Shown here piece by piece: positions 36,754 through 51,846 of a stretch of 64,000 nucleotides of DNA (position 1 is its first letter; each line of letters begins with the position of its first letter). This DNA is from Microbacterium protaetiae. GTDB taxonomy: Bacteria; Actinomycetota; Actinomycetes; Actinomycetales; Microbacteriaceae. The position numbers were made by a program, and so were the translations under genes. Under the pieces are notes generated by a model. The model saw only the letters and a list, made by a program, of their open reading frames with translations, did not search any database and was not told where the DNA came from. Location: the NCBI RefSeq assembly GCF_004135285.1, contig NZ_CP035494.1, positions 1,488,001 through 1,552,000 of the forward strand. The letters are read 5' to 3'.

Positions 36754-37130
36754 TTGCTGACGGGTTCGTCATCGAGAGTGGATCGCCGACGTTCCTATGG
36801 CGGCGCGAAAGCCGGGTCCCGTCCGACGGGGCGGGAGTTCCGGCTTCTACTTCCCAACCGTCATCGGCGGCTGGGGACGCCATTCTGCGAACCATGGCGA
36901 CCTACGGGGATGAGACGCGCGACGATCTTCTTCGCCGATAGGGTGGCTGTGCATCCGTTTGGAGTCGGAGAGCTTTAGGTGTGAAGGGCCAGCAAGGCCG
37001 ATGCGTGCACGTAACCGCGGGGGCGCATGGGAGTGAGGGGGAGAATGGCGCGTGATCTTCGATGCCGTATGGCGGTTGTGCCGGGGTAGTCGCATCCTGA
37101 TCGACTTGCCGTTTTGCAGATGAGGTGCTC
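36754..37130. other. non-coding leader of the BREX operon
   Basis: About 375 bases with no credible gene; short ORFs on both strands have poor composition. It should contain the brx promoter, but no convincing -35/-10 pair was found. It ends with GAGG five bases before the brxA GTG. No BrxR-type regulator gene precedes the operon. Confidence 0.5.
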
Positions 37131-37739
37131 GTGAGCAACAACCCGGTCGCATCGTCGCGCTATGCCCTGTCGTTCACGACCGGAGGCCTCCTGGAACGTG
37201 AGGCGGCGGTGTTGGCACCCGTATACACGGAACATCGCGACTGGGCGAAGGTGCGTGACGTCGCTGTCAACGGGAACCTTCTTCAGGCGCGAACACACAG
37301 TACGGGTGTGCGTCGTGTGCGAGAAACAGTCAACCGGATGTCGGTGCTGTCCGACCCTGAGATTGAACTCTTCGCCGAGGTCACCGCCTCCGAGCGCGGT
37401 CACCTCATGTGGGTTGCCGCGTGCCGTCGCTACGATTTCATCGGGGACTTCGCCGAGGAAGTCCTCCGCGAGCGCTTCCTCACCCTGGCCAGCACGGTCT
37501 CCTACGAGGAATACGACTCGTTCTATCGGGCCAAGAGCATGTGGCATGACGAACTCGACACTGTCTCGGTGGCCACCTACAAGAAGCTGAGGCAGGTGCT
37601 CTTCAAGATGATGGTCGAGGCCGGGCTGCTGACTGCCGAGGGCGCAATCGAACCCACGCTGGTCTCCGCGCGGGTTGCCGAGTGCCTTGCCGAGCGCACG
37701 CCGAGTGACATCCGCTTCTTTCCGACGAGGGTGATCTGA
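37131..37739 (+). CDS. brxA: BREX protein BrxA (DUF1819)
   Basis: First gene of the type 1 BREX operon; 202 residues. BrxA is a small helical DNA-binding protein required in several BREX systems. The start region SSRYALSFTTGGLLEREA and the C-terminal SDIRFFPT segment are characteristic of the DUF1819 family. GTG at 37131 is preferred (GAGG five bases before); GTG at 37125 is also in frame. The stop overlaps the brxB start (TGATG). Confidence 0.93.
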   Translation: MSNNPVASSRYALSFTTGGLLEREAAVLAPVYTEHRDWAKVRDVAVNGNLLQARTHSTGVRRVRETVNRMSVLSDPEIELFAEVTASERGHLMWVAACRRYDFIGDFAEEVLRERFLTLASTVSYEEYDSFYRAKSMWHDELDTVSVATYKKLRQVLFKMMVEAGLLTAEGAIEPTLVSARVAECLAERTPSDIRFFPTRVI

Positions 37740-38350
37740 TGCCTCTGCACTCGCGGGCCACGCTGGCACAGCAAGAGGAGCACCTGTTCACGGTGCTCAG
37801 CAGTGAGCGCTTCCTGAAGATGGAGGGCCTCGGCAACGAGGTCGCTCACTTCATCTACGACTACGACCCGGGGTGGGCGCTCGACGTCGCCCGGGCCAAG
37901 AAGCGCATCAAGACGAAGCTCGACACCGAGCTGGGCATCAAAGTCCTCGAGATCAACCTCTACGATCTGTGCGTCGACCTGCTCAAGCGCCGCGGTGTCT
38001 GGGAGCGCGTCCTCGCCGCGGAGCCGACGATGGACAAACCCGACTTCCTCAAGATGCTCCAGAACATGCTCGACCCTCAGCTGCATCTCGCCCCGGCCAT
38101 CAAGGAGCGCATTGCGGAAGAGCCGTTCCAGATCCTCTTCCTCACCGGTGTGGGTGAGGTTTTCCCGTTCGTCCGCTCGCACACGGTGCTGAACAACCTG
38201 CAGACGGTCGTCTCGAACAAGCCCATGCTGATGTTCTTCCCCGGTCGGTACGAAGTATCGGCCACCCAGGGCTCATCCCTGGTTCTGTTCGGCCAGCTCA
38301 AAGACGACTCCTTCTACCGCGCCAAGCGCATCCTCGACCAGGAAGCATGA
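37739..38350 (+). CDS. brxB: BREX protein BrxB (DUF1788)
   Basis: A 203-residue protein of the DUF1788/BrxB family. Recognisable blocks are FIYDYDP near residue 40, EINLYDLCVDLLKRRG in the middle and FPFVRSHTVLNNLQ and LMFFPGRYE towards the end. BrxB associates with PglZ and other BREX proteins; the exact role is unsettled in the family. It is coupled to brxA and lies four bases before brxC. Confidence 0.93.
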   Translation: MPLHSRATLAQQEEHLFTVLSSERFLKMEGLGNEVAHFIYDYDPGWALDVARAKKRIKTKLDTELGIKVLEINLYDLCVDLLKRRGVWERVLAAEPTMDKPDFLKMLQNMLDPQLHLAPAIKERIAEEPFQILFLTGVGEVFPFVRSHTVLNNLQTVVSNKPMLMFFPGRYEVSATQGSSLVLFGQLKDDSFYRAKRILDQEA

Positions 38351-38354
38351 CCCG

Positions 38355-41300
38355 ATGAAACTCAATGAGATCTTCCTCAAAGATGTCACCCGCTCCATCG
38401 AGGGTGTCGTCAAGGCCGACGACGCCGACCACCTGGGCATCGAGGTCGAAGAATACGTCTTCACGAACGACGCCGCGAAGGGCGTCGCGCCGCTGCTGGT
38501 GGAGTACACCAACTACACGAACGCCAACGGCGTGTGGGTCTCGGGCTTCTTCGGTTCCGGAAAGTCGCACCTGCTCAAGATGCTGGCGCATCTGCTCGGT
38601 GACGTCGAGGGTCAGTCGTTCTCACGGGAACGGGTGAGTGAGAGCTTTCTCGGTAAGACTGACGACGATGCGATGCTCGTTGCTTCACTGAAGAAGGCCG
38701 CTGCTATCCCGGCGAAGAGCCTGCTTTTCAACATCGACCAGAAGGCAACCCTGATCGCCAAGGACCAGACCGACGCTCTGCTTAAGGTCTTCGTCAAGGT
38801 CTTCGACGAGAGCCGCGGCTACTTCGGCAACGATGGCGCCGTCGCCCGCTTCGAGGAGGACCTCGACAAGCGCGGCCAGTATGACGCGTTCAAGGCGGCA
38901 TTCGCCGCACATGCCGGAATCGACTGGTCACAGGGGCGCGAGCAGACGGCGCTTGAGGGCCACAACATCGACAAGGCGTTCGCCGAGGTCAACGGCGAGG
39001 CGAACCCGGGGATCATCGCGCAATATCAGAAGTCCTACGCGCTCTCGATCGAAGACTTCGCCACGTCGGTGAAGGCGTGGCTGGACAGGCAGGAGCCGGG
39101 GTTCCGGCTCAACTTCTTCGTCGATGAGGTCGGGCAGTTCATCGCCGACGACGTGAAGCTCATGCTCAACCTGCAGACGATCGCCGAGTCCCTCAACACG
39201 AAGTGCAAGGGACAGTCGTGGGTCTTCGTCACTTCTCAGGAGGATATGGACAAGGTCGTCGGCGATCGCACGAAGCAGCAGGGCAACGACTTCTCCAAGA
39301 TCCAGGCTCGGTTCCGCGTCAAGGTGAAGCTCACCAGTCAGGACGTCGAAGAAGTCATCAGCAAAAGACTGCTGGAGAAGAACGATGCGGGCGCTGCCGC
39401 CCTCGTATCGATCCACTCTCAGGAGGCAGCGAACTTCCCGACCATCTTCAACTTCGTCGACGGCGCGAAGACCTACCGCAACTATGTCGATGAGGCGCAC
39501 TTCATCAACATGTACCCGTTCGTCACGTACCAGATCCCGATGTTCCAGGCTGCGATCGAGACGCTGTCCGATCGCAACATGTTCGAGGGCAAGAACAGCT
39601 CTGTCGGCGAGCGTTCGATGCTCGGTGTCGTACAGGAGGTCGCCAAGCGCATCGGAGCCGAACAGGTTGGCTATCTCGCGACCTTCGACCAGATGTTCGC
39701 GGGCATCAGTGCCGCGCTGAAGTCGTCGGCCCAGAGCGCGATCCTCCAGGCCGAGAAACACCTGCCCGACCCAGCATCGGACATCACGATCCTCGCCAAC
39801 CGGCTGCTTAAGGCGCTGTTCCTGGTCAAATACGTCGACACCTTCAAAGCCACTCCGCGCAACCTCACCGTGCTCGTCTACGACCGCTTCGGGCTCGACC
39901 TCACCGGACTTGGTGCGCAGGTGCAGGAGGCCCTCAACCTGCTGGAATCCCAGTCGTATGTCCAGCGGAACGGCAATCTCTACCTGTATCTCACCAATGA
40001 GGAACAGGAGATCGAGAAGGAGATCAAGGCGTTCGACATCGACTCGAGCGATGTCTCGAGCAAGCTCTTCCGCTATCTCTCGTCCGACGTGCTCAAGACC
40101 AACAAGATCAAGTATGCGAAGAACGGGCAGGACTTCTCGTTCGGTTACAAGCTCGACGATGTCGTGCAGGGAAACCAGCGTGAACTGACCATCCACTTCA
40201 TCACGCCCGAGACGAGCTACAGTGACTCTGAGATCTTGGCGCAGAGCATGGGCCGGGATGAGTTGCGGGTCTTCCTCGGCCGCGACAAGCGACTGCTTGC
40301 AGACTTGCGCCTGCTCCTGAAGACCGAGAAGTACATCAAGCAGCGCACCAATTCCGGTGCGACGCCGTCGATGCAACGAATCCTGCAGTCCAAGCAGTCG
40401 CTCAATGCCGATCGGGAGAAGGAGTTCATCGAGCGACTACGCCAGGCCGTCGGCAAGGCGCAGCTGATCATCAACGCTGCGGAGATTCCCTCCGGTGCAC
40501 AGGATGCTGTGACCCGGGTCTCAGATGGATTCCAGGAACTCATCAGCCGGACCTACACGAACCTCGGATTGCTCGGCGGGAAGGTGTATTCCGAACGCGA
40601 CGTCGCCGGTGCGGTTCGCAACGACCCGGCGCTGTTCAGTTCCTCAAGCCTGAGCATGCTCGCCTCTCCCGCGACGGAGATGGAGTCGTGGATCATCACG
40701 CAGAAGACTGTCGGCGAGCAGTTGACGATCAAGAAGATCGTCGATCGCTTCGAGGCTAAGCCATACGGGTGGGATCTCGGGTCCATCGAAGTCGTGCTGG
40801 GATGGCTCGTCGGCAATGGCAGGGTGGTGCTGAGCGTCAGCTCGAATCCAGTTGTCCGCACGGAGACGATCGACCTCATCCGGAACACGGGGAAGCACCC
40901 GTATGTCGTCGTCGCGCCGCAGAAGACTTATGATCCGGCGAAGGTCGCCGCCTTCAAGAGGTTCTGCACAGAGTTCTTCGATGAGGGCGCCGTTCCGAGC
41001 GACTCCGCCGAGCTCGCCCGGTTCGGCAAGGACCGGCTCGCGTCGAGGCGTGAGGAGCTCAACACCCTCGTGAACACCAGCCGGTATCCGTTCGTCGGTC
41101 AACTCAAGAGTGCTGTCGCTTTGCTTGACGAGGTCGTCGGTAAGCCGGTCAACTGGTATCTCAGCGATTTCGACACTGCTGACGAGCTGCTGGAGGTGAA
41201 GGAGGATCTGATCGACCCGATCCGGTCCTTCCTCAATGGCCAGCAGGCGAAGATCTTCGACGAGGCGCAGGCTCTCCTGAACGCCAATGTGGGGAACCTC

Positions 41301-41843
41301 AACTATCTTCCTGCCGGCTGCGCCGATGTCGTCATGGGGCTGCTCGTGGACGCCAATGCGTTCCGCAGCAACAAGATGAATCAGCTCAAGGTCGCGGCTG
41401 ACGCTCTGCGTGGGCGTATCGACGAGGTCGTCGCCGACAAGCGCGGCAGTGTCACTGAAGCGATTCAGGGACGTAAAGCGGAGATCCTCGAGAGCGCCTA
41501 CTATGCGAGGGCCACTGCTGAGGCGCAGGAGGGTGTTGCCCGACGAATCGATCTGATCCTTGCGAGGATCGCAGGCGAGGGGCAGATCGCCCTCATTCTC
41601 CAGACGGGATCGACATTCGAGCAGGATGAGTATCCGGAACTTCTCAACAGGTTGGTTGAGTCGCCGCCGCCTGGCCCAGTCACTCCAGTCGTCGTGCCGA
41701 AGCCGATGGTGTCGGTCAAGACGATCACCGTACCCGGTGCATCGGGCGTCCTTGAGTCCGAGGACGACGTCGATGCCTACCTTGCCAAGTATCGCGCCGC
41801 ACTCGTGGCAACCCTCGACGCAGGAAAGCGAATCACGCTCTGA
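38355..41843 (+). CDS. brxC: BREX P-loop ATPase BrxC
   Basis: A 1162-residue BrxC/PglY-type ATPase. Walker A GFFGSGKS lies at residues 64-71 and a Walker B-like FFVDEVGQF at about 250. Long helical regions follow, as in the family, where BrxC probably acts as an ATP-dependent scaffold of the defence and methylation complex. The stop overlaps the pglX start (TGATG). Length and order are normal, so this part of the operon appears intact. Confidence 0.95.
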   Translation: MKLNEIFLKDVTRSIEGVVKADDADHLGIEVEEYVFTNDAAKGVAPLLVEYTNYTNANGVWVSGFFGSGKSHLLKMLAHLLGDVEGQSFSRERVSESFLGKTDDDAMLVASLKKAAAIPAKSLLFNIDQKATLIAKDQTDALLKVFVKVFDESRGYFGNDGAVARFEEDLDKRGQYDAFKAAFAAHAGIDWSQGREQTALEGHNIDKAFAEVNGEANPGIIAQYQKSYALSIEDFATSVKAWLDRQEPGFRLNFFVDEVGQFIADDVKLMLNLQTIAESLNTKCKGQSWVFVTSQEDMDKVVGDRTKQQGNDFSKIQARFRVKVKLTSQDVEEVISKRLLEKNDAGAAALVSIHSQEAANFPTIFNFVDGAKTYRNYVDEAHFINMYPFVTYQIPMFQAAIETLSDRNMFEGKNSSVGERSMLGVVQEVAKRIGAEQVGYLATFDQMFAGISAALKSSAQSAILQAEKHLPDPASDITILANRLLKALFLVKYVDTFKATPRNLTVLVYDRFGLDLTGLGAQVQEALNLLESQSYVQRNGNLYLYLTNEEQEIEKEIKAFDIDSSDVSSKLFRYLSSDVLKTNKIKYAKNGQDFSFGYKLDDVVQGNQRELTIHFITPETSYSDSEILAQSMGRDELRVFLGRDKRLLADLRLLLKTEKYIKQRTNSGATPSMQRILQSKQSLNADREKEFIERLRQAVGKAQLIINAAEIPSGAQDAVTRVSDGFQELISRTYTNLGLLGGKVYSERDVAGAVRNDPALFSSSSLSMLASPATEMESWIITQKTVGEQLTIKKIVDRFEAKPYGWDLGSIEVVLGWLVGNGRVVLSVSSNPVVRTETIDLIRNTGKHPYVVVAPQKTYDPAKVAAFKRFCTEFFDEGAVPSDSAELARFGKDRLASRREELNTLVNTSRYPFVGQLKSAVALLDEVVGKPVNWYLSDFDTADELLEVKEDLIDPIRSFLNGQQAKIFDEAQALLNANVGNLNYLPAGCADVVMGLLVDANAFRSNKMNQLKVAADALRGRIDEVVADKRGSVTEAIQGRKAEILESAYYARATAEAQEGVARRIDLILARIAGEGQIALILQTGSTFEQDEYPELLNRLVESPPPGPVTPVVVPKPMVSVKTITVPGASGVLESEDDVDAYLAKYRAALVATLDAGKRITL

Positions 41844-44452
41844 TGGATACCGCTCCGCTCAAGTCCTTCGCCACGTCGGCGCGCACGGAACTCATCCGCG
41901 AGGTGGGCGCGCGCATCACAGCGGTACTCGCGCCGGGGTCGCCCGAGCGCGTCGAACAGCCACGTGCCGTCAACGCACTGGAGCAGGCCATCGCCGCCGC
42001 CGGCGGAGGCGTCGAGGGCAAGGCACATGTGATCGACAAGGTCGCCTACACGTGGTTCAACCGCATCGTCGGCCTGCGCTTCATGGATGCCAACGGCTAC
42101 ACCGGCATCGGCATCGTCTCGCCTGCAGCCGATCAGGTCGGCCAGCCCGAAGTCCTCGCAGCCGCTAAGCGCGGGCAGGTCGACGGCGACGTGGTCAAGG
42201 GTGCTACCGCGGCGACCGTCACGGGTCTGCTCAATGGCACGCGTGTGTCGCGTCCGGGCGTCGATGCTCAAGCCGAGGCGTACGCGCTCCTCCTGGCGGA
42301 CTACTGCCGCTACTGGAATCGCGCCATGCCCTTCCTGTTCGAGCGTGAGGGTGACTACACCGAGCTGCTGATCCCCGCCAATCTGCTCGCCGAGGACTCT
42401 GTACTGAGCCGTTCTGTCACGGTGCTCACCGAGGATGTGTGCCGGGACGTCGAGGTCATCGGCTGGCTCTACCAGTTCTACATCTCGGAGCGGAAGGACG
42501 AGGTCTTCGCAGGGTTCAAGAAGAACAAGAAGGCGGGTGCCGATGAGATCCCCGCCGCCACTCAGCTCTTCACTCCGCACTGGATCGTCCGGTACCTGGT
42601 GGAAAACTCGCTCGGACGGCTGTGGATGCTCAACCATCCCGAGTCCCGTCTCGTCGACCGGATGGACTACTACATCGCGCCCGTCGATGAAGAGGCGGAC
42701 TTCCTCAAGATCACCGCACCCGAAGAACTCACAGTGATCGACCCGGCCTGCGGATCGGGGCACATGCTGACCTACGCCTTCGATCTGCTCTATGCGATCT
42801 ACGAAGAGGAGGGGTACACGCCCTCGCAGATTCCGGGTCTGATCCTTGCGAACAACATCTTCGGCACCGAGATCGACCTCCGTGCGGGGTCGCTGGCCGC
42901 ATTCGCTCTGACGATGAAAGCCACCGCGAAGCGCAAGCTCTTCCTGAAGAACCCAATCGCGCCGAACATCTGCGTATTGGAGCCGATCTCGTTCAATGCC
43001 GAGGAGCTGCGCTATCTCGTCACGGACGACGGCGACCGGCACGCGGAGGAGGCGTTCTGGAACGAGTTCGCCCACGCTGACACGTTTGGTGCGCTCATCC
43101 AGCCTGACGCGGCGCTGACCGTGCGGCTTGGCGAACACCTCGCAACCCTTGAAGCCGGGGGCGACATCTTCCGGGCTGACACACTCCGCTGGGCCCAGCG
43201 CGTCGTCGAGCAAGCCACGTACCTTGCGAGCAGCTATGGGGTGGTGGTTGCGAACCCGCCCTACATGGGCAGCAAGCAGATGAATGCTCTGCTTTCACAG
43301 TTCATGAAGGACGAGTACCTGGAGGTAAAGCAGGATCTCTACGGGGCCTTCGTGCTCCGCGGCATCGAACTCACCGACCGACACGGGCTGCTCGCCATCG
43401 TCATTGGTGACACTTGGATGTCCATCAAGTCATTCGAGGCCTTGCGGCTCCGTCTGCTGGACGGCCACGCCTTTGACTCGTTCGTCCACATGCGCGACGT
43501 GTCCAACCACCCAGATATCTTCGGCGCCAACGCCGCCTTCGTGCTGTCGATGTCTGGCAAACGCAGCAGACACGCACCGTTCATCCGACTGACGCCCCTC
43601 GGGCAGGAACGTAAGGAAGAAAATCTTCGTGTCGCTCTGGCGGAGCGAACCAGAGAATCGGGCTTCCATCGGGCATCCGGCGAAGACTTCGCCGCGATCC
43701 CCGGCTCGCCGATCGTTTACTGGCTCAGTGAAAAGATGCGCGCCATCTTCACTGCTGGTGATCTACTCGGATCGGTAGCCTCCCTGGCCGTCGGCTTGCA
43801 GACGGGGGACAACAACCGGTTTCTGCGTCAGTGGTGGGAAGTCTCTCGCGCGCGCTCCGCCTTCGGTTGCACGTCACGTGAAGAGGCCGCCGCCAGCGGC
43901 GCCCGCTGGTACCCGTACAACAAGGGCGGCGAGTTCCGGAAGTGGTACGGGAACCAGGAGTACGTCGTCAACTGGGAGAACGACGGTGCGGAGATCCGAG
44001 CATTCGGAACTGAGGATGGCAGGCGCCCGAGGTCGAGGGCACAGAACACCGAGTCATACTTTTCACCGTCAGTGTCGTGGTCGGACATTTCGTCTGGGGA
44101 AGCGGCGTTTCGTCGCTTCCCGGCCGGGTTCATCCATGACGTCAAGGGGATGTCCGCGTTCGGTGACGCCAGCCTTCTGGACGGCGTAGCTGTCCTGATG
44201 AACTCCAGCTTTACTCGCGCCATCCTCAGAGCCATCGCACCAACCGTGAACTTCCAGATCGGTGACGTGGGAAGGGTCCCGGTTGACCATCTTGCGGAGC
44301 TTCCATCGAATGCCGCGAGTCTAGTAGCAACGGCGCAGATGGATTGGGACGACTCCGAGACCTCGTGGGAGTTCGCTCGGAACCCACTCGTCGAACTATC
44401 GGAATGCGGAAAGGGCCACGCTTGGTGTCTCCGAGATCCGTATGTCAGCTGA
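41843..44452 (+). CDS. pglX: BREX adenine methyltransferase PglX, N-terminal part with current specificity region
   Basis: An 869-residue protein where complete BREX-1 PglX is about 1200. SAM motif DPACGSGHM lies near residue 300 and the N6-adenine motif NPPYMGS near 471. From residue 485 on (QFMKDEY) the sequence enters the predicted invertible segment and encodes a target-recognition region with IPGSPIVYWLSEKMR and a Trp/Tyr-rich block. It ends just after RNPLVELS, exactly where other PglX proteins continue with the C-terminal region found here as a separate gene at 46975. It is transcribed after brxC with a TGATG overlap. It should methylate host DNA at the BREX site and take part in phage exclusion. 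Confidence 0.93.
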   Translation: MDTAPLKSFATSARTELIREVGARITAVLAPGSPERVEQPRAVNALEQAIAAAGGGVEGKAHVIDKVAYTWFNRIVGLRFMDANGYTGIGIVSPAADQVGQPEVLAAAKRGQVDGDVVKGATAATVTGLLNGTRVSRPGVDAQAEAYALLLADYCRYWNRAMPFLFEREGDYTELLIPANLLAEDSVLSRSVTVLTEDVCRDVEVIGWLYQFYISERKDEVFAGFKKNKKAGADEIPAATQLFTPHWIVRYLVENSLGRLWMLNHPESRLVDRMDYYIAPVDEEADFLKITAPEELTVIDPACGSGHMLTYAFDLLYAIYEEEGYTPSQIPGLILANNIFGTEIDLRAGSLAAFALTMKATAKRKLFLKNPIAPNICVLEPISFNAEELRYLVTDDGDRHAEEAFWNEFAHADTFGALIQPDAALTVRLGEHLATLEAGGDIFRADTLRWAQRVVEQATYLASSYGVVVANPPYMGSKQMNALLSQFMKDEYLEVKQDLYGAFVLRGIELTDRHGLLAIVIGDTWMSIKSFEALRLRLLDGHAFDSFVHMRDVSNHPDIFGANAAFVLSMSGKRSRHAPFIRLTPLGQERKEENLRVALAERTRESGFHRASGEDFAAIPGSPIVYWLSEKMRAIFTAGDLLGSVASLAVGLQTGDNNRFLRQWWEVSRARSAFGCTSREEAAASGARWYPYNKGGEFRKWYGNQEYVVNWENDGAEIRAFGTEDGRRPRSRAQNTESYFSPSVSWSDISSGEAAFRRFPAGFIHDVKGMSAFGDASLLDGVAVLMNSSFTRAILRAIAPTVNFQIGDVGRVPVDHLAELPSNAASLVATAQMDWDDSETSWEFARNPLVELSECGKGHAWCLRDPYVS
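43296..43319 (+). repeat. left 24-bp inversion site candidate
   Basis: CACAGTTCATGAAGGA followed by CGAGTACC, inside pglX at codons 485-492. It matches the right copy at 23 of 24 positions in inverse orientation. Homology stops abruptly on the outer side. It includes the 8-bp palindrome TTCATGAA. Confidence 0.7.
43808..43996 (+). repeat. 189-bp inverted repeat, pglX copy
   Basis: Encodes DNNRFLRQWWEVSRARSAFG onward to NWENDGAEI. It is identical to the inverse of 44841-45029 at all but one base (C/T in GTGGTAYGGG). Two shorter identical blocks are also shared: 43703-43742 with 45095-45134, and 44058-44094 with 44761-44797. Confidence 0.92.
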
Positions 44453-45596
44453 GCGCGACCAGCGGGTTACGTTCGAAGCTCCACGACGTCTCCGAGAGGT
44501 CCCAATCTGCTCGCGAGGTCTCAACCAAGTTATCGACCCCGCAGCGAGAGAGGTCCCTGACACCTGGAGCAACCGGCACGAGGCCGACGTACCCAATATG
44601 GAAGTGAAGAGTGGGCGCCACTACTTTCATGACCTCCATCACAAACATGGAATTCAGGAGCGATGTGATCTGGTCCAGCATCGCCGGATCTCCGAACCCC
44701 GAGTGACCGGTCGAGTCATGGATGAAGCCCTGGGGATAGCGGCGGAAGGCGGCCTCGCCCGACGAAATGTCCGACCACGACACTGACGGTGAAAAGTAGG
44801 TTCCGGGATTGCGGATGACCGATCGGGGCTTGAAACCGAAGATCTCCGCACCGTCGTTCTCCCAGTTGACGACGTACTCCTGGTTCCCATACCACTTCCG
44901 GAACTCGCCGCCCTTGTTGTACGGGTACCAGCGGGCGCCGCTGGCGGCGGCCTCTTCACGTGACGTGCAACCGAAGGCGGAGCGCGCGCGAGAGACTTCC
45001 CACCACTGACGCAGAAACCGGTTGTTGTCAGCCGTAGCGAGTCCTTGTCGGAGGTTCGCCACTTCGCTCAGCGGCTTCCCTGCCGCGAAGGATCCGCGCA
45101 TCTTTTCACTGAGCCAGTAAACGATCGGCGAGCCAGGGATCGCCGCGAGGTCAGCCTGCGCCACCTCGAAGCGGTTGTATGTGGCGTCGCGGAAAAGCTT
45201 CTCGATCGTGGCGACTGACCGGACGTCAACGTGCTGCTCGAACAGGCGCCGGTAGACACCGGTCGTATTCGGCCCAGGGCGGACGTTGTCGATGACGAAG
45301 GCGACGGAGCCGAAGTCCGACCCGAAGACGCCCCGCCCGAGGTGCACCATCGAGGCGATCCGCTGGGTCCGAAGAAGGTCGTGGCGCAGATCCTCGAACG
45401 ACTTGAGTGACATCCATGACGGTAGATCGATCATGGCCCAGGACCCCCGTCGGCGCGTGAGCTCCTGCCCGCGCACCATAAATGCAGTCATAAGGTCGGC
45501 CTTGCCGCTCGGGTACTCATCCTTCATGAACTGTGTTGCCGACAGCCGGCTTCTCCAACTGCCATGGAGCTGTTCGGGGCGCAGCGCCGTTGCCAA
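44445..45596 (-). CDS. silent inverted pglX specificity cassette (no methyltransferase part)
   Basis: Reading leftwards, the part from about 45535 encodes QFMKDEY, then IPGSPIVYWLSEKMR, the same WWEVSRARSAFG block and the ending RNPLVALS-stop, i.e. an alternative version of PglX residues 485-869. Conserved blocks are nearly identical in DNA while the segments between them differ strongly, as expected for alternative target-recognition regions. The methyltransferase motifs are missing and the first 20 codons (45536-45596) are unrelated, so it is probably not expressed until inverted onto the pglX 5' part. Confidence 0.85.
   Translation of the reverse strand: MATALRPEQLHGSWRSRLSATQFMKDEYPSGKADLMTAFMVRGQELTRRRGSWAMIDLPSWMSLKSFEDLRHDLLRTQRIASMVHLGRGVFGSDFGSVAFVIDNVRPGPNTTGVYRRLFEQHVDVRSVATIEKLFRDATYNRFEVAQADLAAIPGSPIVYWLSEKMRGSFAAGKPLSEVANLRQGLATADNNRFLRQWWEVSRARSAFGCTSREEAAASGARWYPYNKGGEFRKWYGNQEYVVNWENDGAEIFGFKPRSVIRNPGTYFSPSVSWSDISSGEAAFRRYPQGFIHDSTGHSGFGDPAMLDQITSLLNSMFVMEVMKVVAPTLHFHIGYVGLVPVAPGVRDLSRCGVDNLVETSRADWDLSETSWSFERNPLVALS
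44841..45029 (-). repeat. 189-bp inverted repeat, silent-cassette copy
   Basis: Inverse copy of 43808-43996 with 188 of 189 bases identical; 844 bases separate the two arms. It allows RecA-dependent inversion as well as site-specific recombination, or may reflect gene conversion between cassettes. Confidence 0.92.
45512..45535 (-). repeat. right 24-bp inversion site candidate
   Basis: Inverse of the left site (one mismatch: GAAGGATGAG against GAAGGACGAG). It lies at the junction between the silent cassette and unrelated DNA leading to the recombinase gene. Confidence 0.7.
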
Positions 45597-45621
45597 CGTC
45601 CTCGGCGGTGGACCGACGGAT

Positions 45622-45642
45622 GGCTACCCTAATGGCTACCCT
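45622..45642 (+). repeat. left 21-bp direct repeat flanking the recombinase
   Basis: GGCTACCCTAATGGCTACCCT, a pair of GGCTACCC words 12 bases apart, ends 17 bases before the recombinase start. The same element recurs at 46890-46910 with two mismatches. Confidence 0.75.
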
Positions 45643-45659
45643 CCGGGCGACCATGGAGG

Positions 45660-46871
45660 ATGTCACAGTCGAAGCAGCGCAGCAAAGGGACAGGCTCGGT
45701 CTACCGGAACTCGCGGGGGCAGTGGGTGGCGGCCATCGAGGCAGGCTGGACCGCTCAGGGAACCAGGCATCGGCTCACGCTCAAGGCTCGGACTCAGTCG
45801 GAAGTTCTTGCCCGGCTGTCTGCGGCGCAACGACGCATCGCGACGGAGGGCCCGGCGGGGGCATGCGCCAGCGTCACGATGAAGCGCTGGGTTGACGAGT
45901 GGCTCGCCCAGCGCCAGCACATCGTGCGCCCGGGCACGTTCGTCTCGGACCGCTCGGCCGTCCGTCGGTGGATAGTCCCGGCAATCGGGCACCTGCGTCT
46001 CGATTCCTTGACGCCGTCCGACATCCGTAGAGTCGCCGCGTCGCAAGAAGGAGCCGGGCTCGCACTCGCGACGATGCAGCGTACTCACGCGGTGTTGGGG
46101 AAGATCCTCGCGGACGCGGTCGCCGATGGATATCAGGTCGCCCAACGCGCGCGGGAGACGGCCAGTCCGGGACTGGGCCCTTCGCTGAGGCAGTCGCTCG
46201 GCGTGGCTGATGCGATGAAGATCCTCGCGGTTGCCGCCGACCGACCCGATGCCTCGCGGTGGGTGGCAGCGCTCGTCGAGGGCCTCCGCCCGGCCGAGGC
46301 GCTCGGCCTGACTTGGGACATGGTCGACCTCGACGGTGCAACCATGACGCTCGCCTGGCAGCTCAAGTCGCTCCCTTATGTCGAACACCGGAATCCCCGC
46401 AGCGGCTTCCGCGTCCCGCGCGGCTTCGAATCCCGCAACCTGCAGGGCGCTTACCACCTGGTACGGCCGAAGACCCGGGCTGGCAGCCGCGTCGTCCCAC
46501 TCGTGCCGTGGCTCGTCGACGCGCTGACGGTGTGGCGCGGGCACGCGGTCTCGCCCTACGGGCTGGTGTGGCCTCGGGACGATGGCTCACCGCGATCGGC
46601 GGAGTTCGACCGGAGACAGTGGTACGAGATCGCCGAGCAGGCGAAGGTCCTCGTGACGCTGCCCGACGGTCGAACGCGGCTCCCACTGCTGTACGAAGCG
46701 CGCCATACCGCCGCCACGCTGCTGCTCGCCAACGGGATCGACGAGACCACGATCAAGGCGATCCTCGGCCATTCCTCCGTGCTGAGCACGCAGTCCTACC
46801 TGCACACCGATAAGACGCGAACCCGTGCGGCGCTCGCGACATCCGCTCGGACACTGGGGCTGGGCGGGTAG
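45660..46871 (+). CDS. tyrosine recombinase/integrase
   Basis: A 403-residue phage-type integrase. An N-terminal arm-binding domain (GSVYRNSRGQWVAAIEAG) is followed by a SAM-like core-binding domain (VDEWLAQRQHIVRPGTFVSDRSA) and the catalytic domain with Arg210 (EGLRPAEALGL), Arg348 (YEARHTAAT), His371 (LGHSS) and nucleophile Tyr380 (TQSYLH). The usual first His of the HxxR box is Tyr345. GGAGG abuts the ATG at 45660, which is unusually close. Position between the silent cassette and the PglX C-terminal gene makes it the likely catalyst of pglX inversion; prophage origin is possible. Confidence 0.93.
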   Translation: MSQSKQRSKGTGSVYRNSRGQWVAAIEAGWTAQGTRHRLTLKARTQSEVLARLSAAQRRIATEGPAGACASVTMKRWVDEWLAQRQHIVRPGTFVSDRSAVRRWIVPAIGHLRLDSLTPSDIRRVAASQEGAGLALATMQRTHAVLGKILADAVADGYQVAQRARETASPGLGPSLRQSLGVADAMKILAVAADRPDASRWVAALVEGLRPAEALGLTWDMVDLDGATMTLAWQLKSLPYVEHRNPRSGFRVPRGFESRNLQGAYHLVRPKTRAGSRVVPLVPWLVDALTVWRGHAVSPYGLVWPRDDGSPRSAEFDRRQWYEIAEQAKVLVTLPDGRTRLPLLYEARHTAATLLLANGIDETTIKAILGHSSVLSTQSYLHTDKTRTRAALATSARTLGLGG

Positions 46872-46889
46872 CCTGGAGAAACGCACATC

Positions 46890-46910
46890 GGCTACCCCCA
46901 TGGCTACCCT
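46890..46910 (+). repeat. right 21-bp direct repeat flanking the recombinase
   Basis: GGCTACCCCCATGGCTACCCT, 18 bases after the recombinase stop; matches 45622-45642 at 19 of 21 positions. An inverted GGGTAGCC also overlaps the end of the recombinase gene (46866-46873). These could be arm-type binding sites or the scar of the recombinase insertion. Confidence 0.75.
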
Positions 46911-46974
46911 TCCGTGCTCCGGCCGTGGGCCCACGGTGAAACCGGCGCTCGGCGATCCCTCGTGAGGAATCCTC

Positions 46975-47898
46975 TTGAAGACGCTTGAACAGACAGTCGC
47001 GCGGCACCGCGACGAGTGGAAGTCGCGGTCACTCGAACAGCAGCGGCTGGAGATCGAGAACAATGAGGCAGTCGCGAAGCTCTACGGACTCGAAGATGAG
47101 GTCCCTTCCTACGTTCCGCTGGAACGCGTGTCGCTGACGAACAACTCCGCGTTCCGCTGGCCGAGCAAGACGCCACAGGAGAGGGACGCACTGTTCGCAC
47201 AGTCCGCGATCATCGATCTCATCTCGTACGCCGGCGGCTGTATGTTCGGGCGCTACAGCCTGGATGAGCCGGGGTTGATTCTCGCCGACCAGGGATCCAC
47301 TCTCGACGACTATCTCGCTCGGATCCCGAACCCAACGTTCCTGCCCGACAAGGACAACGTCATCCCGATCGTCGATGGCGATGACTGGTTTGAAGATGAC
47401 ATCGTGGATCGGTTCCGGGTCTTCCTCCGCACGGTGTTCGGCGAGCAGCACTTAGAGGAGAACCTGCGGTTCGTGACCGCATCGCTTGGCGTGAAGAGAC
47501 TGCGCGACTATTTCGTGAAGTCCTTCTACAAGGATCATGTACAGCGTTACAAGAAGCGCCCGATCTACTGGCTGTTCTCCAGCCCCAAGGGCTCGTTCAA
47601 CGCCCTGATCTACATGCACCGCTACACGCCCTCGACCGTCTCGACGGTGCTCACCTACCTGCGTGAGTACGTGACCAAGCTGGAATCGGCCCTTCAGCAG
47701 GCCGAGCGCTCAGGCAATGCGAAGGAGGCGGATCGGCTGCGCAAGATCCTCGTCGAGTTGAACGAATACGAATACGCCACCCTCTTCCCGAAGGCATCGG
47801 AGAACGTCGTGATCGACCTCGACGATGGCGTCAGGGCCAACTATCCGAAGTTCGGCGCAGCGCTCAAGAAGATCCCGGGCCTGGAGGCATCCCAGTGA
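46975..47898 (+). CDS. PglX C-terminal region encoded as a separate protein
   Basis: A 307-residue protein that matches the conserved C-terminal third of BREX PglX: LEIENNEAVAKLYGLEDEV, SYAGGCMFGRYSLDEPGLI, DDWFEDDIVDRF, HLEENLRFVTASLG and KDHVQRYKKRPIYWLFSSPKGSFNAL. No methyltransferase motif is present. The frame is blocked by TGA just upstream, and TTG at 46975 has GAGGA seven bases before it, so it is translated independently. Joined after RNPLVELS of the upstream gene it would restore a PglX of about 1170 residues. I infer a two-piece PglX; loss of function is the alternative. Confidence 0.88.
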   Translation: MKTLEQTVARHRDEWKSRSLEQQRLEIENNEAVAKLYGLEDEVPSYVPLERVSLTNNSAFRWPSKTPQERDALFAQSAIIDLISYAGGCMFGRYSLDEPGLILADQGSTLDDYLARIPNPTFLPDKDNVIPIVDGDDWFEDDIVDRFRVFLRTVFGEQHLEENLRFVTASLGVKRLRDYFVKSFYKDHVQRYKKRPIYWLFSSPKGSFNALIYMHRYTPSTVSTVLTYLREYVTKLESALQQAERSGNAKEADRLRKILVELNEYEYATLFPKASENVVIDLDDGVRANYPKFGAALKKIPGLEASQ

Positions 47899-47914
47899 CA
47901 GGGGCGAGTTCGTG

Positions 47915-49357
47915 ATGGCCGATCTCCTCGCCTTGGATGCGGCAGGACGGGCGACTGCTCCCGAGGGGAAGACGCGCGAGTACAAGCGGGATCTATCCTC
48001 GCCGGCGAAGCCGCTGCGCACCATCGTCGCCTTCGCGAACTCCGCTGGCGGGCAATTGGTCATTGGCGTCGCCGATGACGGCACAGTCAGCGGGGTGGCC
48101 GATCCGCTCGCCGAGGAGGAGCGACTCTCCAGCCTGATCGCGGACAGCATCGAACCCCAGCTCGTTCCTGCCATCGACCTCGTCACCGTCGACGGTGCGA
48201 CCGTACTCGTCGTCGAGGTTCCCTTGAGCACGCGGCGGCCACACTACATGAAGGCGCAGGGGATCGACGGTGGGGTGTACGTACGCCTCGGGTCGACGAC
48301 CCGCCGAGCGGATCCCGCGCTGGTCGCCGAACTGGAGCGGACTGCGCGGGGCGTCGCGTTTGAAGATCTCCCTGAGCTGCGGGCATCGCTCGCAGACCTC
48401 GACCTCGCCCTTCTCAGTGACCTCCGCGGGCGCAGGACCACGCCGACAGACCTCGTCGCGTTAGGTCTGGCAGTCGCTGAGGGGGAGACAGCCGTTCCTA
48501 CCAATGCCGGAGTCCTCGCCGCATGCCCTGATCCGACACGGTTTATCCCCTCTGCCTGGGTGCAGTGTGGCCGACTCCGCGGTCCGCAGGGCATTGACAT
48601 CTTCGATCAGCTCGAGATCCATGAGCCGCTGCCGCAAGCGGCCGGCGAGGTGATGGCCTTCCTGACCAAGCATGCGTACAAGACAGGAGTGTTCGGTCAG
48701 GCGCGGCGCAACGATGTCTACTCGATCCCGCTGAAAGCGATACGAGAGGTGGTCGTCAACGCACTCGTCCACGCGAGTTACGCGGAGCGTGGCACTCCGA
48801 TCCGCGTCGGCTTCTACGACAGCCGGATCGTCATCGAGAGCCCCGGCGGACTCGTGTCGGGTATGACGGTGGGGATGATGCGGGGGGTGTCGCGACTCCG
48901 CAACCCGTCCTTGGCACGCATCTTCCGAGACGCCGGGCTCATCGAGCAGTGGGGAAGCGGACTTAACCGCGTCTACGACGAGATTGCCGCGGCAGGTCTT
49001 CCCGAACCGGACATCGAGGAGATCGTAGACCGGGTCCGCGTCACCATCTACATCGACGATCATTCGATGCGCCCGCAATCGAACGAGGGAGATACCTACA
49101 CGCGTAGCAAAGATCGTAGGCATGTTGGTAGGTATGATGTGGGGATGTTGAGTGCAGCGGTCGACGGCCCCGTACACCGCGATGTCCTGCTCGAAGCCGT
49201 CGGACTCAAGCCGTTGTCGCAGAACTACACGAGGCACGTTGTGCCGCTCCTAGAAGCGGGGTTGTTAGTGATGACGGTTCCCGACAAGCCACGCAGCAAG
49301 GCGCAGCGGTATCGGATCACTCCCGCTGGGTGGGATTTTCTGGAGGGCTCGAAGTGA
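47915..49357 (+). CDS. AlbA_2/Schlafen-type ATP-binding protein
   Basis: A 480-residue protein: N-terminal AlbA_2 domain (TREYKRDLSSPAKPLRTIVAFANSAGGQLVIGVADDG), then a GHKL/HATPase_c_4-like domain (AIREVVVNALVHASYAERGTPIRVGFYDSRIVIESPGG ... LRNPSLARIFRDAGLIEQWGSG) and a C-terminal winged helix. Such proteins act as regulators or helicase-like accessory factors. It starts 16 bases after the PglX C-terminal gene and its stop overlaps the pglZ GTG. It is not one of the six core BREX-1 genes, so it may regulate or extend the system. Confidence 0.88.
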   Translation: MADLLALDAAGRATAPEGKTREYKRDLSSPAKPLRTIVAFANSAGGQLVIGVADDGTVSGVADPLAEEERLSSLIADSIEPQLVPAIDLVTVDGATVLVVEVPLSTRRPHYMKAQGIDGGVYVRLGSTTRRADPALVAELERTARGVAFEDLPELRASLADLDLALLSDLRGRRTTPTDLVALGLAVAEGETAVPTNAGVLAACPDPTRFIPSAWVQCGRLRGPQGIDIFDQLEIHEPLPQAAGEVMAFLTKHAYKTGVFGQARRNDVYSIPLKAIREVVVNALVHASYAERGTPIRVGFYDSRIVIESPGGLVSGMTVGMMRGVSRLRNPSLARIFRDAGLIEQWGSGLNRVYDEIAAAGLPEPDIEEIVDRVRVTIYIDDHSMRPQSNEGDTYTRSKDRRHVGRYDVGMLSAAVDGPVHRDVLLEAVGLKPLSQNYTRHVVPLLEAGLLVMTVPDKPRSKAQRYRITPAGWDFLEGSK

Positions 49358-51846
49358 CCGATTTGACCTCCGTCCGGGATGCGATTCAGAGCCGGATCGC
49401 TTCCCAACGGGTCGTGTTCTGGCACGATCCCGCCGGCGAGTACGCTGCCGAACTCGACGCACTCGATCTTGGCGCGATCGATGTCATCCGTGTCGAGGAC
49501 AACGAGTTCGGCGTGAAGAACACGATCCTCGCCGACTCGGTCGGCACGTACCTTGTCTACCGTTCCGGTGACATCCCCCGGGAGACGGCGAATTGGCTGC
49601 TCGATCTCGAGCTTGCGTATGGCGTATTCGTGGCTGACAAGATCTCGATGATCCAGCAGGAACTCGGCCTGAACGATCCGGAACTGCTGTCGGTGATCGA
49701 GCAGCACCAGAAGTTCTTCGCCGCGAATAGCCGCAAGCGGGCTCTCGAGAAGCTCTTGGATCGCGGAGACGATGCCGCCCGCCTTCGCGCCAAGATGTGC
49801 CAGGTGCTCGTCAAATCGTCGGGCAACAAGCTGACCGACATCGTGCGTGAGCTCCTGGTCGAGAACGCCGCAGGGAGGAAAGCAAAGTTCGACGATCTCG
49901 TCACTTTCGGCCTTGACGAGTTCTTCTGGGAGGGCCTCGCGAACATCTACAAGTACCAGAGCACGTCACCGACCATCGACGACTTCGTCCTGTGGATGTT
50001 CGGCCGTGCCATGGAGGACTTCGCGTCGTCGGCGCCGGACGAGTACCGGAATATCCGCAGTGATTTCAATGGCCTGCGATACGACGTCCGTACCCAGGGG
50101 GTCATGACCAAGCTGGCCGCACGCGCCGCCGAAGCGCTCGACGTGAAGTCCAAAATCGAGGACCGCGACTTCCGTGACCTGGCCGGCGTCACGATCTTCG
50201 AGGACGTCGACCGCAAGGTGATCAGAGACCTGGCGGCGTCCGTCTCGATGCAGTCGGTGACACCCCGAGACGTCGCCGACATCGTTCGGCGGCGCCAGCA
50301 CAGCCTGTGGCGCGCCAAGTATGCCAAGCTCTACGAAGCCATTCAGAGTGGTTCGGACTTGCTCGCAGCGATCGGCGCTCTGCCATCGGCTATCGGTTCG
50401 GTGGCCGCCGGTCTGGACAAGTACCAGTCCGATTGGTTCCGCATCGACCAGCACTACCGTCGATTCACCTACGCCCACCAGACCGCCGACTTCCAGAGTC
50501 CGCTCGAAAAACTCAGGGCCGAGGTCGACAAACAATACGCCAACAGATACCTCTACGACTTCGGCGGGCTCTGGCAGCAGGCTCTTGAGCCCCTAAGCGA
50601 ATGGAAGTCGGCCGCCCTCGCGCCACAGGCAAGTTTCTTCAGCGACCACGTTGCGCCCATCGTCAAAGACGGGCGTACCAAAGCGGTGGTGATCATCTCT
50701 GACGGCATGCGTTACGAGATCGCCGAGGAACTCACATCGATCATCCGCGGTGAGGACCGATTCGCAGCGTCGCTGTCTGCCGTTCTCGGCTCGCTGCCGA
50801 GTTATACCCAGCTCGGAATGGCGTCGCTCCTACCGCAGTCGAGCCTCGAGTTGGACCCCGAGGGCCTGCCGGTGTTCGCGGACGGGAAACCCACGAACGG
50901 AACCGCAAACCGGGACAAGATCCTGGAGGCGGTCAAGGGGTGCGCCATCACCGCGGCCGAAGTCTTGTCCATGCCGGCGAGCGAGCTTCGCGAGCTGTAC
51001 ACGCGGCATCAGATCTTCTACGTCTACCACGACCGGATCGACGCTGCAGGTGACAAGGCGCCAACGGAGAGGACCGTTTTCGAGGCCGCCGAGGAGACCC
51101 TTCGAGAGCTTGCTCTGCTTGTGAAGAAGTGGACGAATGCCAACGCTACGAACATCCTGATCACCGCAGACCACGGGTTCCTCTATCAAGACATTCCGCT
51201 GGAGGAGTCGTACTACATCTCGGAGTCTCCTCGAGGTGAAGCGGTCACCAAGGTCAACCGCCGGTATGCACTCGGGCGATCGCTGAAGCCATCGCCCTCC
51301 TTCATGACATTCACCTCGCCCCAGGTGGGGCTGGCGGGCGACATCGACATTCAGATCCCCAAGTCGATTCACCGCATCCGCCAGCCCGGTGCGGGCACCC
51401 GGTACGTCCACGGCGGTGCATCGTTGCAGGAGATCGTCGTCCCTGTCATCACGGTCAACAAGAAGCGCAAGAGCGACATCCGTTCGGTCGCTGTCGACCT
51501 CATGCCCGAGACTGACAAGATCACCACCGGGCAGCTTGCGGTCAAGCTGCTCCAGCGAGAGCCCATCACCGACAAGATCCAGCCGCGCCAGGTGCGGCTG
51601 GGCCTTTACGCGGGAGAGGCCCTCATCTCCGACCAGCCCGTCCTGACATTCGACAGCGCGGCCGAAGACCAGCGCGATCGATATCAGACAGCCGTCTTGT
51701 ACTTGACCCAGGACGCCGACGAACATAACAATCATCCCGTCGAACTGCGGCTGGAAGAGCCGATCCCGAATACGACGCAGTGGAAGTCATTCTCGAAGGC
51801 GAACTACACGATCAGGCGGTCGTTCACCTCGGACTTCGACTTCTAG
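49354..51846 (+). CDS. pglZ: BREX alkaline-phosphatase-superfamily protein PglZ
   Basis: An 830-residue PglZ type A, the signature protein of BREX. A helical N-terminal half opens with SQRVVFWHDPAGEY; the alkaline-phosphatase-like domain has the metal/nucleophile region VVIISDGMRYEIAEEL at about residue 450 and the metal motif ITADHGFLY at about 605. A C-terminal beta-rich region follows. GTG at 49354 overlaps the preceding TGA and has TGGAGGGC upstream. PglZ is needed for both host DNA modification and phage exclusion in characterised systems. Confidence 0.95.
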   Translation: MTDLTSVRDAIQSRIASQRVVFWHDPAGEYAAELDALDLGAIDVIRVEDNEFGVKNTILADSVGTYLVYRSGDIPRETANWLLDLELAYGVFVADKISMIQQELGLNDPELLSVIEQHQKFFAANSRKRALEKLLDRGDDAARLRAKMCQVLVKSSGNKLTDIVRELLVENAAGRKAKFDDLVTFGLDEFFWEGLANIYKYQSTSPTIDDFVLWMFGRAMEDFASSAPDEYRNIRSDFNGLRYDVRTQGVMTKLAARAAEALDVKSKIEDRDFRDLAGVTIFEDVDRKVIRDLAASVSMQSVTPRDVADIVRRRQHSLWRAKYAKLYEAIQSGSDLLAAIGALPSAIGSVAAGLDKYQSDWFRIDQHYRRFTYAHQTADFQSPLEKLRAEVDKQYANRYLYDFGGLWQQALEPLSEWKSAALAPQASFFSDHVAPIVKDGRTKAVVIISDGMRYEIAEELTSIIRGEDRFAASLSAVLGSLPSYTQLGMASLLPQSSLELDPEGLPVFADGKPTNGTANRDKILEAVKGCAITAAEVLSMPASELRELYTRHQIFYVYHDRIDAAGDKAPTERTVFEAAEETLRELALLVKKWTNANATNILITADHGFLYQDIPLEESYYISESPRGEAVTKVNRRYALGRSLKPSPSFMTFTSPQVGLAGDIDIQIPKSIHRIRQPGAGTRYVHGGASLQEIVVPVITVNKKRKSDIRSVAVDLMPETDKITTGQLAVKLLQREPITDKIQPRQVRLGLYAGEALISDQPVLTFDSAAEDQRDRYQTAVLYLTQDADEHNNHPVELRLEEPIPNTTQWKSFSKANYTIRRSFTSDFDF

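What the first reader, a model, noticed from the sequence alone, without database searches (positions are those of the whole stretch)
41843..47898. Apparently switchable BREX methyltransferase: pglX with an inverted alternative specificity cassette and an adjacent tyrosine recombinase
The 3' part of pglX (from codon 485) has a second, inverted version immediately downstream that lacks the methyltransferase half and shares the same 24-bp border and the same stop palindrome. A tyrosine recombinase lies next to it. Inversion of 43296-45535 would give an intact alternative PglX with a different recognition region and therefore a different methylation and exclusion specificity. Recombinase-driven pglX switching has been described in lactobacilli, so the principle has precedent; the layout here, in an actinobacterium and with a split PglX, appears distinct.
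Basis: partly seen in the sequence, partly recalled or inferred. Interest (0 to 1): 0.93.

Follow-up and report, generated by a model that had tools for sequence, protein, structure and literature searches.

The report
Shuffling switch in phage-defence methyltransferase
A bacterium carries a phage-defence methyltransferase whose DNA-recognition part looks built to be flipped at four separate points by a neighbouring recombinase, so that one small locus could yield up to sixteen different recognition specificities.

Summary
A type 1 BREX locus (brxA-brxB-brxC-pglX-pglZ-brxL) has pglX as two genes: methyltransferase plus recognition region (41843-44452) and C-terminal domain (46975-47898). Between them lie an inverted second recognition region (45535-44445) and a tyrosine recombinase (45660-46871). 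With the window, 15 complete and 7 contig-truncated loci share this layout.

Besides the 24-bp border (IR1), three further inverted pairs (IR2-IR4) cut the recognition region into modules a-d. Inversion at any of the four keeps the frame; all 16 combinations give open, distinct PglX-N proteins. Across loci the modules are reshuffled between strands. The sites are held at DNA level (IR2 serine codon AGT 27/27; fused PglX 8/29). Two natural proteins share 99.8% of the methyltransferase half yet differ in modules a and d with the middle identical. Aligned to E. coli BrxX, the modules separate residues that read base pairs 1, 2, 3-4 and 6.

Best reading: a domesticated integrase runs a combinatorial specificity shufflon in a split BREX methyltransferase. 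Inversion in one strain, and the motifs, remain to be shown.

The parts
37125..37739 (+). brxA
   Evidence: Pfam BrxA 3.7e-49
37739..38350 (+). brxB
   Evidence: Pfam BrxB 4e-41; PADLOC BrxB
38355..41843 (+). brxC
   Evidence: PADLOC BrxC 1488 bits
41843..44452 (+). pglX-N, the expressed gene: N-terminal and methyltransferase part, then recognition region; 869 aa
   Evidence: PADLOC PglX 1.3e-273 over profile 1-872 of 1174; aligns to Salmonella PglX 79-390 and 440-888
43296..43319 (+). IR1, forward copy (border, FMKDEY)
   Evidence: 23 of 24 complementary to 45512-45535
45512..45535 (-). IR1, inverted copy
43320..43702 (+). module a, forward allele (part of the methyltransferase domain that holds the loop matching BrxX 587-601, base pair 6)
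   Evidence: module typing and loop residues; BrxX contacts from PMC11842806 section 9
43703..43742 (+). IR2, forward copy (SPIVYWLSEKMR)
   Evidence: 40 bp exact match to the inverted copy; core at 43715
45095..45134 (-). IR2, inverted copy
   Evidence: core 45102-45122, extended by the 40-bp match
43743..43801 (+). module b, forward allele (positions matching BrxX K681 and D684, base pair 2)
43802..43996 (+). IR3, forward copy (195 bp)
   Evidence: 98% complementary to 44841-45035
44841..45035 (-). IR3, inverted copy
43997..44056 (+). module c, forward allele (position matching BrxX R751, base pair 1)
44057..44094 (+). IR4, forward copy (YFSPSVSWS)
   Evidence: 38 bp exact match; core at 44057
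44761..44798 (-). IR4, inverted copy
   Evidence: core 44775-44798, extended by the 38-bp match
44095..44452 (+). module d, forward allele (positions matching BrxX Q784 and N823, base pairs 3 and 4)
44445..45535 (-). silent inverted recognition region with the other allele of each module
   Evidence: PADLOC PglX profile 501-870 of 1174; 57% identical to the forward region
44445..44452 (.). TCAGCTGA, overlapping stop codons of both regions
45620..45641 (+). paired GGCTACCC repeats, 12 bp apart, upstream of the recombinase (putative arm-type sites)
   Evidence: only 2 places in the window at up to 3 mismatches, none expected; recurs in relatives
45660..46871 (+). tyrosine recombinase, 403 aa
   Evidence: Pfam Phage_integrase 5.7e-13 and Phage_int_SAM_3 5.8e-9
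46888..46909 (+). paired GGCTACCC repeats downstream of the recombinase
46975..47898 (+). pglX-C, C-terminal domain of PglX as a gene of its own, 307 aa
   Evidence: PADLOC PglX; aligns to E. coli BrxX 894-1195
49330..51846 (+). pglZ
   Evidence: Pfam PglZ 3.7e-54
51854..54064 (+). brxL
   Evidence: Pfam BrxL_ATPase 4.2e-124, BrxL_N 5.4e-46

Best explanation
A type 1 BREX system whose PglX is split and whose recognition region is a combinatorial inversion shufflon. A domesticated phage-type tyrosine recombinase recombines inverted pairs of sites (IR1 to IR4) lying in the expressed and in the silent recognition region. Inversion at a site exchanges every module inward of it (IR1: a-d; IR2: b-d; IR3: c-d; IR4: d), so series of inversions let the expressed PglX-N take either allele of each module, 16 forms in all. 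The C-terminal domain comes from a separate constant gene beyond the recombinase, so only the recognition region needs to exist twice. By alignment to E. coli BrxX, module c holds the residue reading base pair 1, b base pair 2, d base pairs 3 and 4, a base pair 6; inversions would therefore change the 6-bp methylation and exclusion motif piecewise. Shown: the anatomy, open frames of all 16 states, reshuffling across loci, codon-level conservation of the sites, repeats round the recombinase. Inferred: that this recombinase acts there, that the two PglX pieces assemble, that the motif changes.
For: Same layout in 15 complete loci incl. the window; all 22 recombinases at 71% identity or more lie in it as far as their contigs reach. 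Frames open in 16 of 16 states. Module-a types differ between strands in 13 of 13 loci typed on both, and types a1, a2, a3 each occur on either strand; 20 combinations among 27 intact regions. IR2 serine AGT 27/27 and GAA 27/27, IR4 TTT 21/21 against AGT 8/29, GAA 1/6, TTT 1/7 in fused PglX. CTTTTCAC 5 times in the window, 0.5 expected, 4 at IR2/IR4, in different frames. Variable site bases agree between the strands of a locus: IR2 12 of 12, IR4 8 of 8. QFMK/RFMK border 18/18 split-length, 2/95 fused. P0328/P0334: 99.8% before IR1, a and d differ, IR2 to IR4 identical.
Against: No direct sight of two orientations in one strain. IR3 and IR4 are missing or altered in several loci (core in 18 and 20 of 27 regions), so four sites are not universal. 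Right arms of the proposed cores are poorly conserved. Five of 32 regions are broken or truncated, so some loci decay. Fused pairs with methyltransferase halves 92-97% identical also differ in recognition region (13 of 14): exchange without any shufflon is common over longer times. AlphaFold2 models of both PglX pieces failed.
Confidence: 0.74

Rival explanations
1. Two-state switch: the recombinase inverts at IR1 only; the inner identical segments come from gene conversion between two copies that face each other.
For: IR1 is the outermost pair and both IR1 and IR2 are in nearly all regions, while IR3 and IR4 are not. In L013 257 bp of the middle are identical, as conversion would leave them.
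Against: IR2 and IR4 keep rare codons and a shared DNA motif in different frames; modules b, c and d recombine independently of a across loci.
Confidence: 0.13
2. RecA-dependent homologous recombination between the inverted copies does the shuffling; the recombinase is a bystander.
For: IR3 is long (195 bp at 98% in the window, up to 257 bp exact in L013) and could serve homologous recombination.
Against: IR1, IR2 and IR4 are short; the recombinase is tied to this layout (22 of 22 at 71% identity or more; 0 of 5 at 46-53%), keeps YEARH, LGH and the tyrosine motif in 16 of 16 and has conserved flanking repeats.
Confidence: 0.08
3. A decayed locus: an integrase and a duplicated fragment broke pglX, and the pieces are remnants.
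For: pglX is in two pieces; L011, L108, L111 and L128 carry broken or truncated regions.
Against: All frames in the window are open, in all 16 states; pglX-C is conserved (mean column identity 80% in 20 chosen sequences) and found alone in many contigs; the layout recurs in 15 complete loci.
Confidence: 0.03
4. Module mosaics arose by horizontal exchange between strains, without inversion inside a cell.
For: Fused PglX proteins with methyltransferase halves 92-97% identical often differ after them (13 of 14 pairs).
Against: The base outside IR1 stays with the position whatever module follows (forward TCA 14 of 16, inverted ACA 13 of 16), each locus keeps a second copy facing the first, and site bases agree within loci.
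Confidence: 0.02

Closest known systems
Recombinase-linked pglX pair of lactobacillar type 1 BREX (L. rhamnosus, passages of PMC7513527; Goldfarb 2015 and Hui 2019 recalled, not held)
   Same: Type 1 BREX with a second, partial PglX and a site-specific integrase beside the main pglX; proposed or reported switching of PglX.
   Different: There a full-length PglX (1198 aa) and a 743-aa partial one are separated by the integrase (PMC7513527). Here PglX is split, the C-terminal domain is single and outside the inverted unit, and four inverted pairs lie inside the recognition region. Whether the lactobacillar pair also has inner sites I could not check.
Type I restriction hsdS inversion systems (recalled; e.g. 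the spnIII locus, seen only as a search listing)
   Same: Combinatorial exchange of recognition modules between an expressed and silent copies through several inverted repeats.
   Different: HsdS is a separate specificity subunit with two half-site domains; here the modules lie inside a methyltransferase that also triggers exclusion, and the cuts fall between residues for single base pairs of one non-palindromic 6-bp site.
Fused BREX PglX/BrxX (8c45, 9ewz)
   Same: Same domains in the same order.
   Different: One chain of 1205-1225 aa; in 73 fused or unresolved relatives fetched, no inverted region and no linked recombinase of this family (L019 has a 26% integrase 6 kb away).
tRNA-Thr-associated phage-type integrases (L090, L091, L116, L117)
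   Same: 46-53% identical recombinase; 12-bp-spaced repeats upstream of the gene in 4 of 4 with upstream DNA.
   Different: No PglX genes beside them; they sit by tRNA-like sequence, a full tRNA-Thr(CGT) called in L117 only.

Membership tests
Type 1 BREX | six genes brxA, brxB, brxC, pglX, pglZ, brxL together | tested here: met
   all six found in order, pglX in two pieces
Type 1 BREX | PglX as one chain with N-terminal, methyltransferase, recognition and C-terminal domains | tested here: not met
   domains present but in two genes with a cassette and a recombinase between
Type 1 BREX | 6mA methylation and phage exclusion | not testable with these tools
   no reads or assay
Tyrosine recombinase | Phage_integrase catalytic domain with its conserved residues | tested here: met
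   PF00589 5.7e-13; YEARH, LGH and YLH in 16 of 16 aligned proteins
Inversion shufflon | several inverted site pairs whose inversion keeps frames and gives different products | tested here: met
   four pairs, 16 open and distinct products in silico
Inversion shufflon | different arrangements in one clonal population | not testable with these tools
   one genome, no reads; P0328/P0334 is indirect
Lactobacillar switchable pglX | full-length PglX beside a partial PglX that includes the C-terminal part | tested here: not met
   the inverted unit lacks the C-terminal domain, which is single at 46975-47898; the description of the lactobacillar pair rests on passages and recall
Type I hsdS inversion system | HsdS specificity subunit with HsdM and HsdR | tested here: not met
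   the switched gene is PglX in a BREX operon

The most novel reading that the evidence does not exclude
A phage integrase, domesticated beside a split BREX methyltransferase, edits a 6-bp recognition motif almost base by base: successive inversions at IR1 to IR4 toggle the parts reading base 6 (module a), base 2 (b), base 1 (c) and bases 3-4 (d) independently, so that one cell lineage can step through up to 16 motifs while every other BREX protein, and the C-terminal part of PglX itself, stays constant.
Probability: 0.5. Interest if true: 0.92.

Novelty: new variant of a known kind. Interest (0 to 1): 0.84.

Why it matters
In BREX the recognition specificity lies in PglX. A locus that can deal out up to 16 recognition motifs would give a population a standing variety of phage defences, and each state would also re-mark the host genome. 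If modules map to base positions, every natural arrangement pairs a known residue set with a readable 6mA motif, which would make the PglX recognition code testable by sequencing existing strains. The separately encoded C-terminal domain also points to a place where PglX tolerates a break in its chain.

Tried and rejected
The stop-codon palindrome as a recombination site: the other loci lack it and their stops overlap or stand apart by varying lengths, so it looks incidental. More loci through plasmids: none. Through viral contigs: 4 loci, three at 53% and one at 22%; L090-L092, L116 and L117 had no PglX beside them within the DNA held (L090 and L092 hold little upstream DNA), L093 was not examined further. 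The first module typing missed modules b and c in many rows through its text pattern and was redone on alignment columns; there the cut-off lumps the two b variants together, so 20 of 27 is a low count. Five of 32 recognition regions (L011 forward, L108 inverted, L111 both, L128 forward) were dropped as broken or truncated. The pairwise alignment failed for L010. The pair analysis covered only proteins with the border motif; redid it for 119 of 120. Its control is thin: fused pairs at 97% or more, 6 of 6 with recognition regions at least 97.5% identical, but all from one group of four proteins. AlphaFold2 models: pglX-C pLDDT 64, PglX-N pLDDT 37 with 16 sequences; neither is usable and no fold search was run. 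Papers: Goldfarb 2015 and Hui 2019 are not held; what I say of them is recalled. Ten searches listed no paper whose title or abstract start describes a split PglX or several inversion sites in pglX; the library is open-licence only and most listed papers were not opened. Passages only were seen of PMC12707154, PMC7513527, PMC11341690, PMC9122589, PMC9716671, PMC6326788, PMC11406413 and PMC6256098; of PMC11842806 passages and all of section 9; PMC10164179 gave no hit for the terms asked.

Full report
What is there. The window lies in a one-contig genome of 3,790,483 bases. The genus is probably Microbacterium: G003, listed as same genus, has its match on a contig of 31,518 bases, the length of the Microbacterium sp. 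WOFB01 contig behind L023; this is an inference. The region is a type 1 BREX locus: brxA 37125-37739, brxB 37739-38350, brxC 38355-41843, pglX-N 41843-44452, pglX-C 46975-47898, a Schlafen/AlbA-type gene 47825-49357, pglZ 49330-51846, brxL 51854-54064. PglX-N aligns to Salmonella PglX (8c45) residues 79-390 and 440-888; pglX-C to E. coli BrxX (9ewz) 894-1195: together they make up one PglX. Between them lie the inverted second recognition region (45535 to 44445) and a tyrosine recombinase (45660-46871).

The layout is a conserved kind. A scan with pglX-C kept 80 loci. Six (L009, L010, L011, L013, L014, L015) have the order methyltransferase-recognition region / inverted recognition region / recombinase / C-terminal gene; L012 has the last two, as far as its contig reaches; of the other 73, none showed an inverted region and one (L019) a 26% integrase some 6 kb away. 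Searches with the recombinase matched 1 of 394 genomes (class; the window's own), 3 of 297 (order of G476), 6 of 198 (family of G482), 5 of 398 (family of G478), 5 of 200 (family of G480) and 3 of 391 (family of G1354) (cut-offs 1e-100 or 1e-120; lower bounds, since few candidates per genome were scored; some genomes recur). The recombinases at 71% identity or more make 22 loci with the window: 15 complete and 7 cut by contig ends (L012, L110, L112, L113, L124, L125, L126). All lie in this layout as far as their DNA goes, although L111 has lost most of both recognition regions; 5 of 5 relatives at 46-53% do not. Stand-alone C-terminal proteins and this recombinase family are frequent in the protein database and share contig lengths, for instance in Gordonia iterans, Brevibacterium casei and Microbacterium lacticum.

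Four inverted pairs. Comparison of the two regions within a locus shows the same islands of near-identity in locus after locus: IR1 at the border (SQFMKDEY), IR2 (SPIVYWLSEKMR), IR3 (a long middle block) and IR4 (YFSPSVSWS), with diverged stretches a, b, c, d between (L010 could not be aligned). The pair as a whole spans 2199-2278 bp in 14 of 16 loci. In the window the four pairs span 2240, 1408, 1102 and 742 bp; all combinations of inversions give 16 arrangements, each with an open and different PglX-N of 847-869 aa.

Modules are reshuffled. Sixteen loci (the 15 and L112) give 32 recognition regions, of which five broken or truncated ones were set aside. Module-a types differ between the strands in 13 of 13 loci typed on both, and types a1, a2 and a3 each occur in forward and inverted position. 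The 27 intact regions show 20 four-module combinations. The codon just outside IR1 stays with the position (forward TCA 14 of 16, inverted ACA 13 of 16) whatever module follows, which puts the crossover at or inside IR1. Distances between forward regions do not follow those between methyltransferase halves (r 0.12, 12 loci), while C-terminal and methyltransferase distances agree (r 0.74, 15 loci; recombinase with these 0.43 and 0.37).

The sites are conserved as DNA. In the 27 regions AGT is 58 of 922 serine codons elsewhere, yet 27 of 27 at IR2; GAA is 189 of 566 elsewhere and 27 of 27 at IR2; TTT is 102 of 601 elsewhere and 21 of 21 at IR4 where the motif exists. In fused PglX the matching serine is AGT in 8 of 29 (1 of 10 actinobacterial ones, by my count), the glutamate GAA in 1 of 6, the IR4-like phenylalanine TTT in 1 of 7 (which found the serine motif in 29 of 73 loci). 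The sequences are related by descent, so the Fisher values are guides only; nearby codons have drifted, however. The border motif QFMK or RFMK is in 18 of 18 split-length and 2 of 95 fused PglX among the 120 best methyltransferase matches (7 of other length left out). IR2 on the minus strand and IR4 on the plus strand share CTTTTCAC, in different reading frames; it occurs 5 times in the window against 0.5 expected, 4 of them at the sites. Bases that vary between loci inside IR2 (CTC or CTG) and IR4 (TCA, TCC or TCT) agree between the two strands in 12 of 12 and, where both copies exist, 8 of 8 loci; strand pairs of one locus agree better than pairs drawn at random at IR2 and IR3 (0 of 20000 permutations) and at IR1 and IR4 (102 and 85 of 20000). 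This is what strand exchange needing a matching overlap would leave; gene conversion would leave it too.

Origin of the recombinase. Paired GGCTACC repeats 12 bp apart stand upstream of it in 11 of 16 loci (in the other five one copy is altered) and past its stop in 10 of 15 (two more with one altered copy, three without; my count); in the window they are found only there. Distant relatives have 12-bp-spaced repeats of their own upstream of the gene, in 4 of 4 with upstream DNA, beside tRNA-like sequence with CTATTCA-TTACGAG-TGAAT (L090, L091) or CCTTTTCA-TTACGAG-TGAAAAGG (L117) (read by eye); ARAGORN calls a full tRNA-Thr(CGT) in L117 only, 1 of 5 loci. The shufflon cores can be read on a like plan: a TTCA arm, a 7-bp overlap different at each of the four sites, then mostly TG. 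That integrases use an anticodon loop as overlap is recalled. I infer a phage integrase turned to inversion with its arm sites kept; the right core arms are poorly conserved, so this model is tentative.

Natural variants. P0334 (Brevibacterium linens) and P0328 (no name given) are 99.8% identical over 484 residues before IR1; then module a differs, from IR2 to IR4 they are identical, and module d differs. P0243 and P0245 are 98.8% identical before IR1 and 46% after. Control (119 proteins): fused pairs at 97% or more agree after that point as well (6 of 6, one group of four proteins), but of 14 fused pairs at 92-97% 13 differ, so ordinary exchange of recognition regions exists too.

What switching would do. 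In E. coli BrxX base pair 1 is read by R751, 2 by K681 and D684, 3 by Q784, 4 by N823 and the last by the loop 587-601 (PMC11842806, section 9). Alignments of both window regions to BrxX put these in modules c, b, d, d and a. At K681/D684, R751, Q784 and N823 the forward region has V/Q, Q, V, N and the inverted one Q/A, R, S, H; the base-6 loop differs as well. The alignment is of moderate certainty round K681. Arginine at the R751 position goes with G at position 1 in the E. coli and Salmonella enzymes, whose motifs GGTAAG and GATCAG I saw in passages of PMC12707154. So the four crossovers fall between residues that read different bases. That the motif changes accordingly is a prediction.

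Known and new. A full and a partial PglX with an integrase are known in L. rhamnosus (PMC7513527 passages; primary papers recalled), other papers mention phase variation of pglX in general or by homopolymeric tracts (passages), and combinatorial hsdS inversion is known for type I systems (recalled). Not found in ten searches of an open-licence library: the split PglX with a constant C-terminal gene, four inverted pairs in one recognition region, DNA-level site conservation against fused PglX, and the base-wise partition. I file it as a new variant of a known kind.

Noticed in passing
window 47825-49357 (+): A Schlafen/AlbA_2 plus HATPase_c_4 gene lies inside the BREX operon between pglX-C and pglZ; the longest ORF overlaps the end of pglX-C, so its true start may lie later.
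   Followed up: no
L011 and L128 (forward region), L108 (inverted region), L111 (both): One recognition region is broken in three loci and both are truncated in L111 (inverted span 804 bp); an off state, decay or assembly error cannot be told apart.
   Followed up: partly
L012, L110, L112, L113, L124, L125, L126: 7 of 22 loci are cut by a contig end inside or next to the cassette or recombinase, which would fit mixed or repeated sequence breaking assemblies.
   Followed up: no
   Followed up: no
P0263, P0277: Fused PglX proteins (1165 and 1175 aa) that carry the QFMK border and IR2-like motif of the split kind: possible intermediates.
   Followed up: partly
G000:C1:3527843-3528373 (L003): The same genome has a second, distant relative of the recognition region (32%) in an open frame of 1066 residues.
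   Followed up: no
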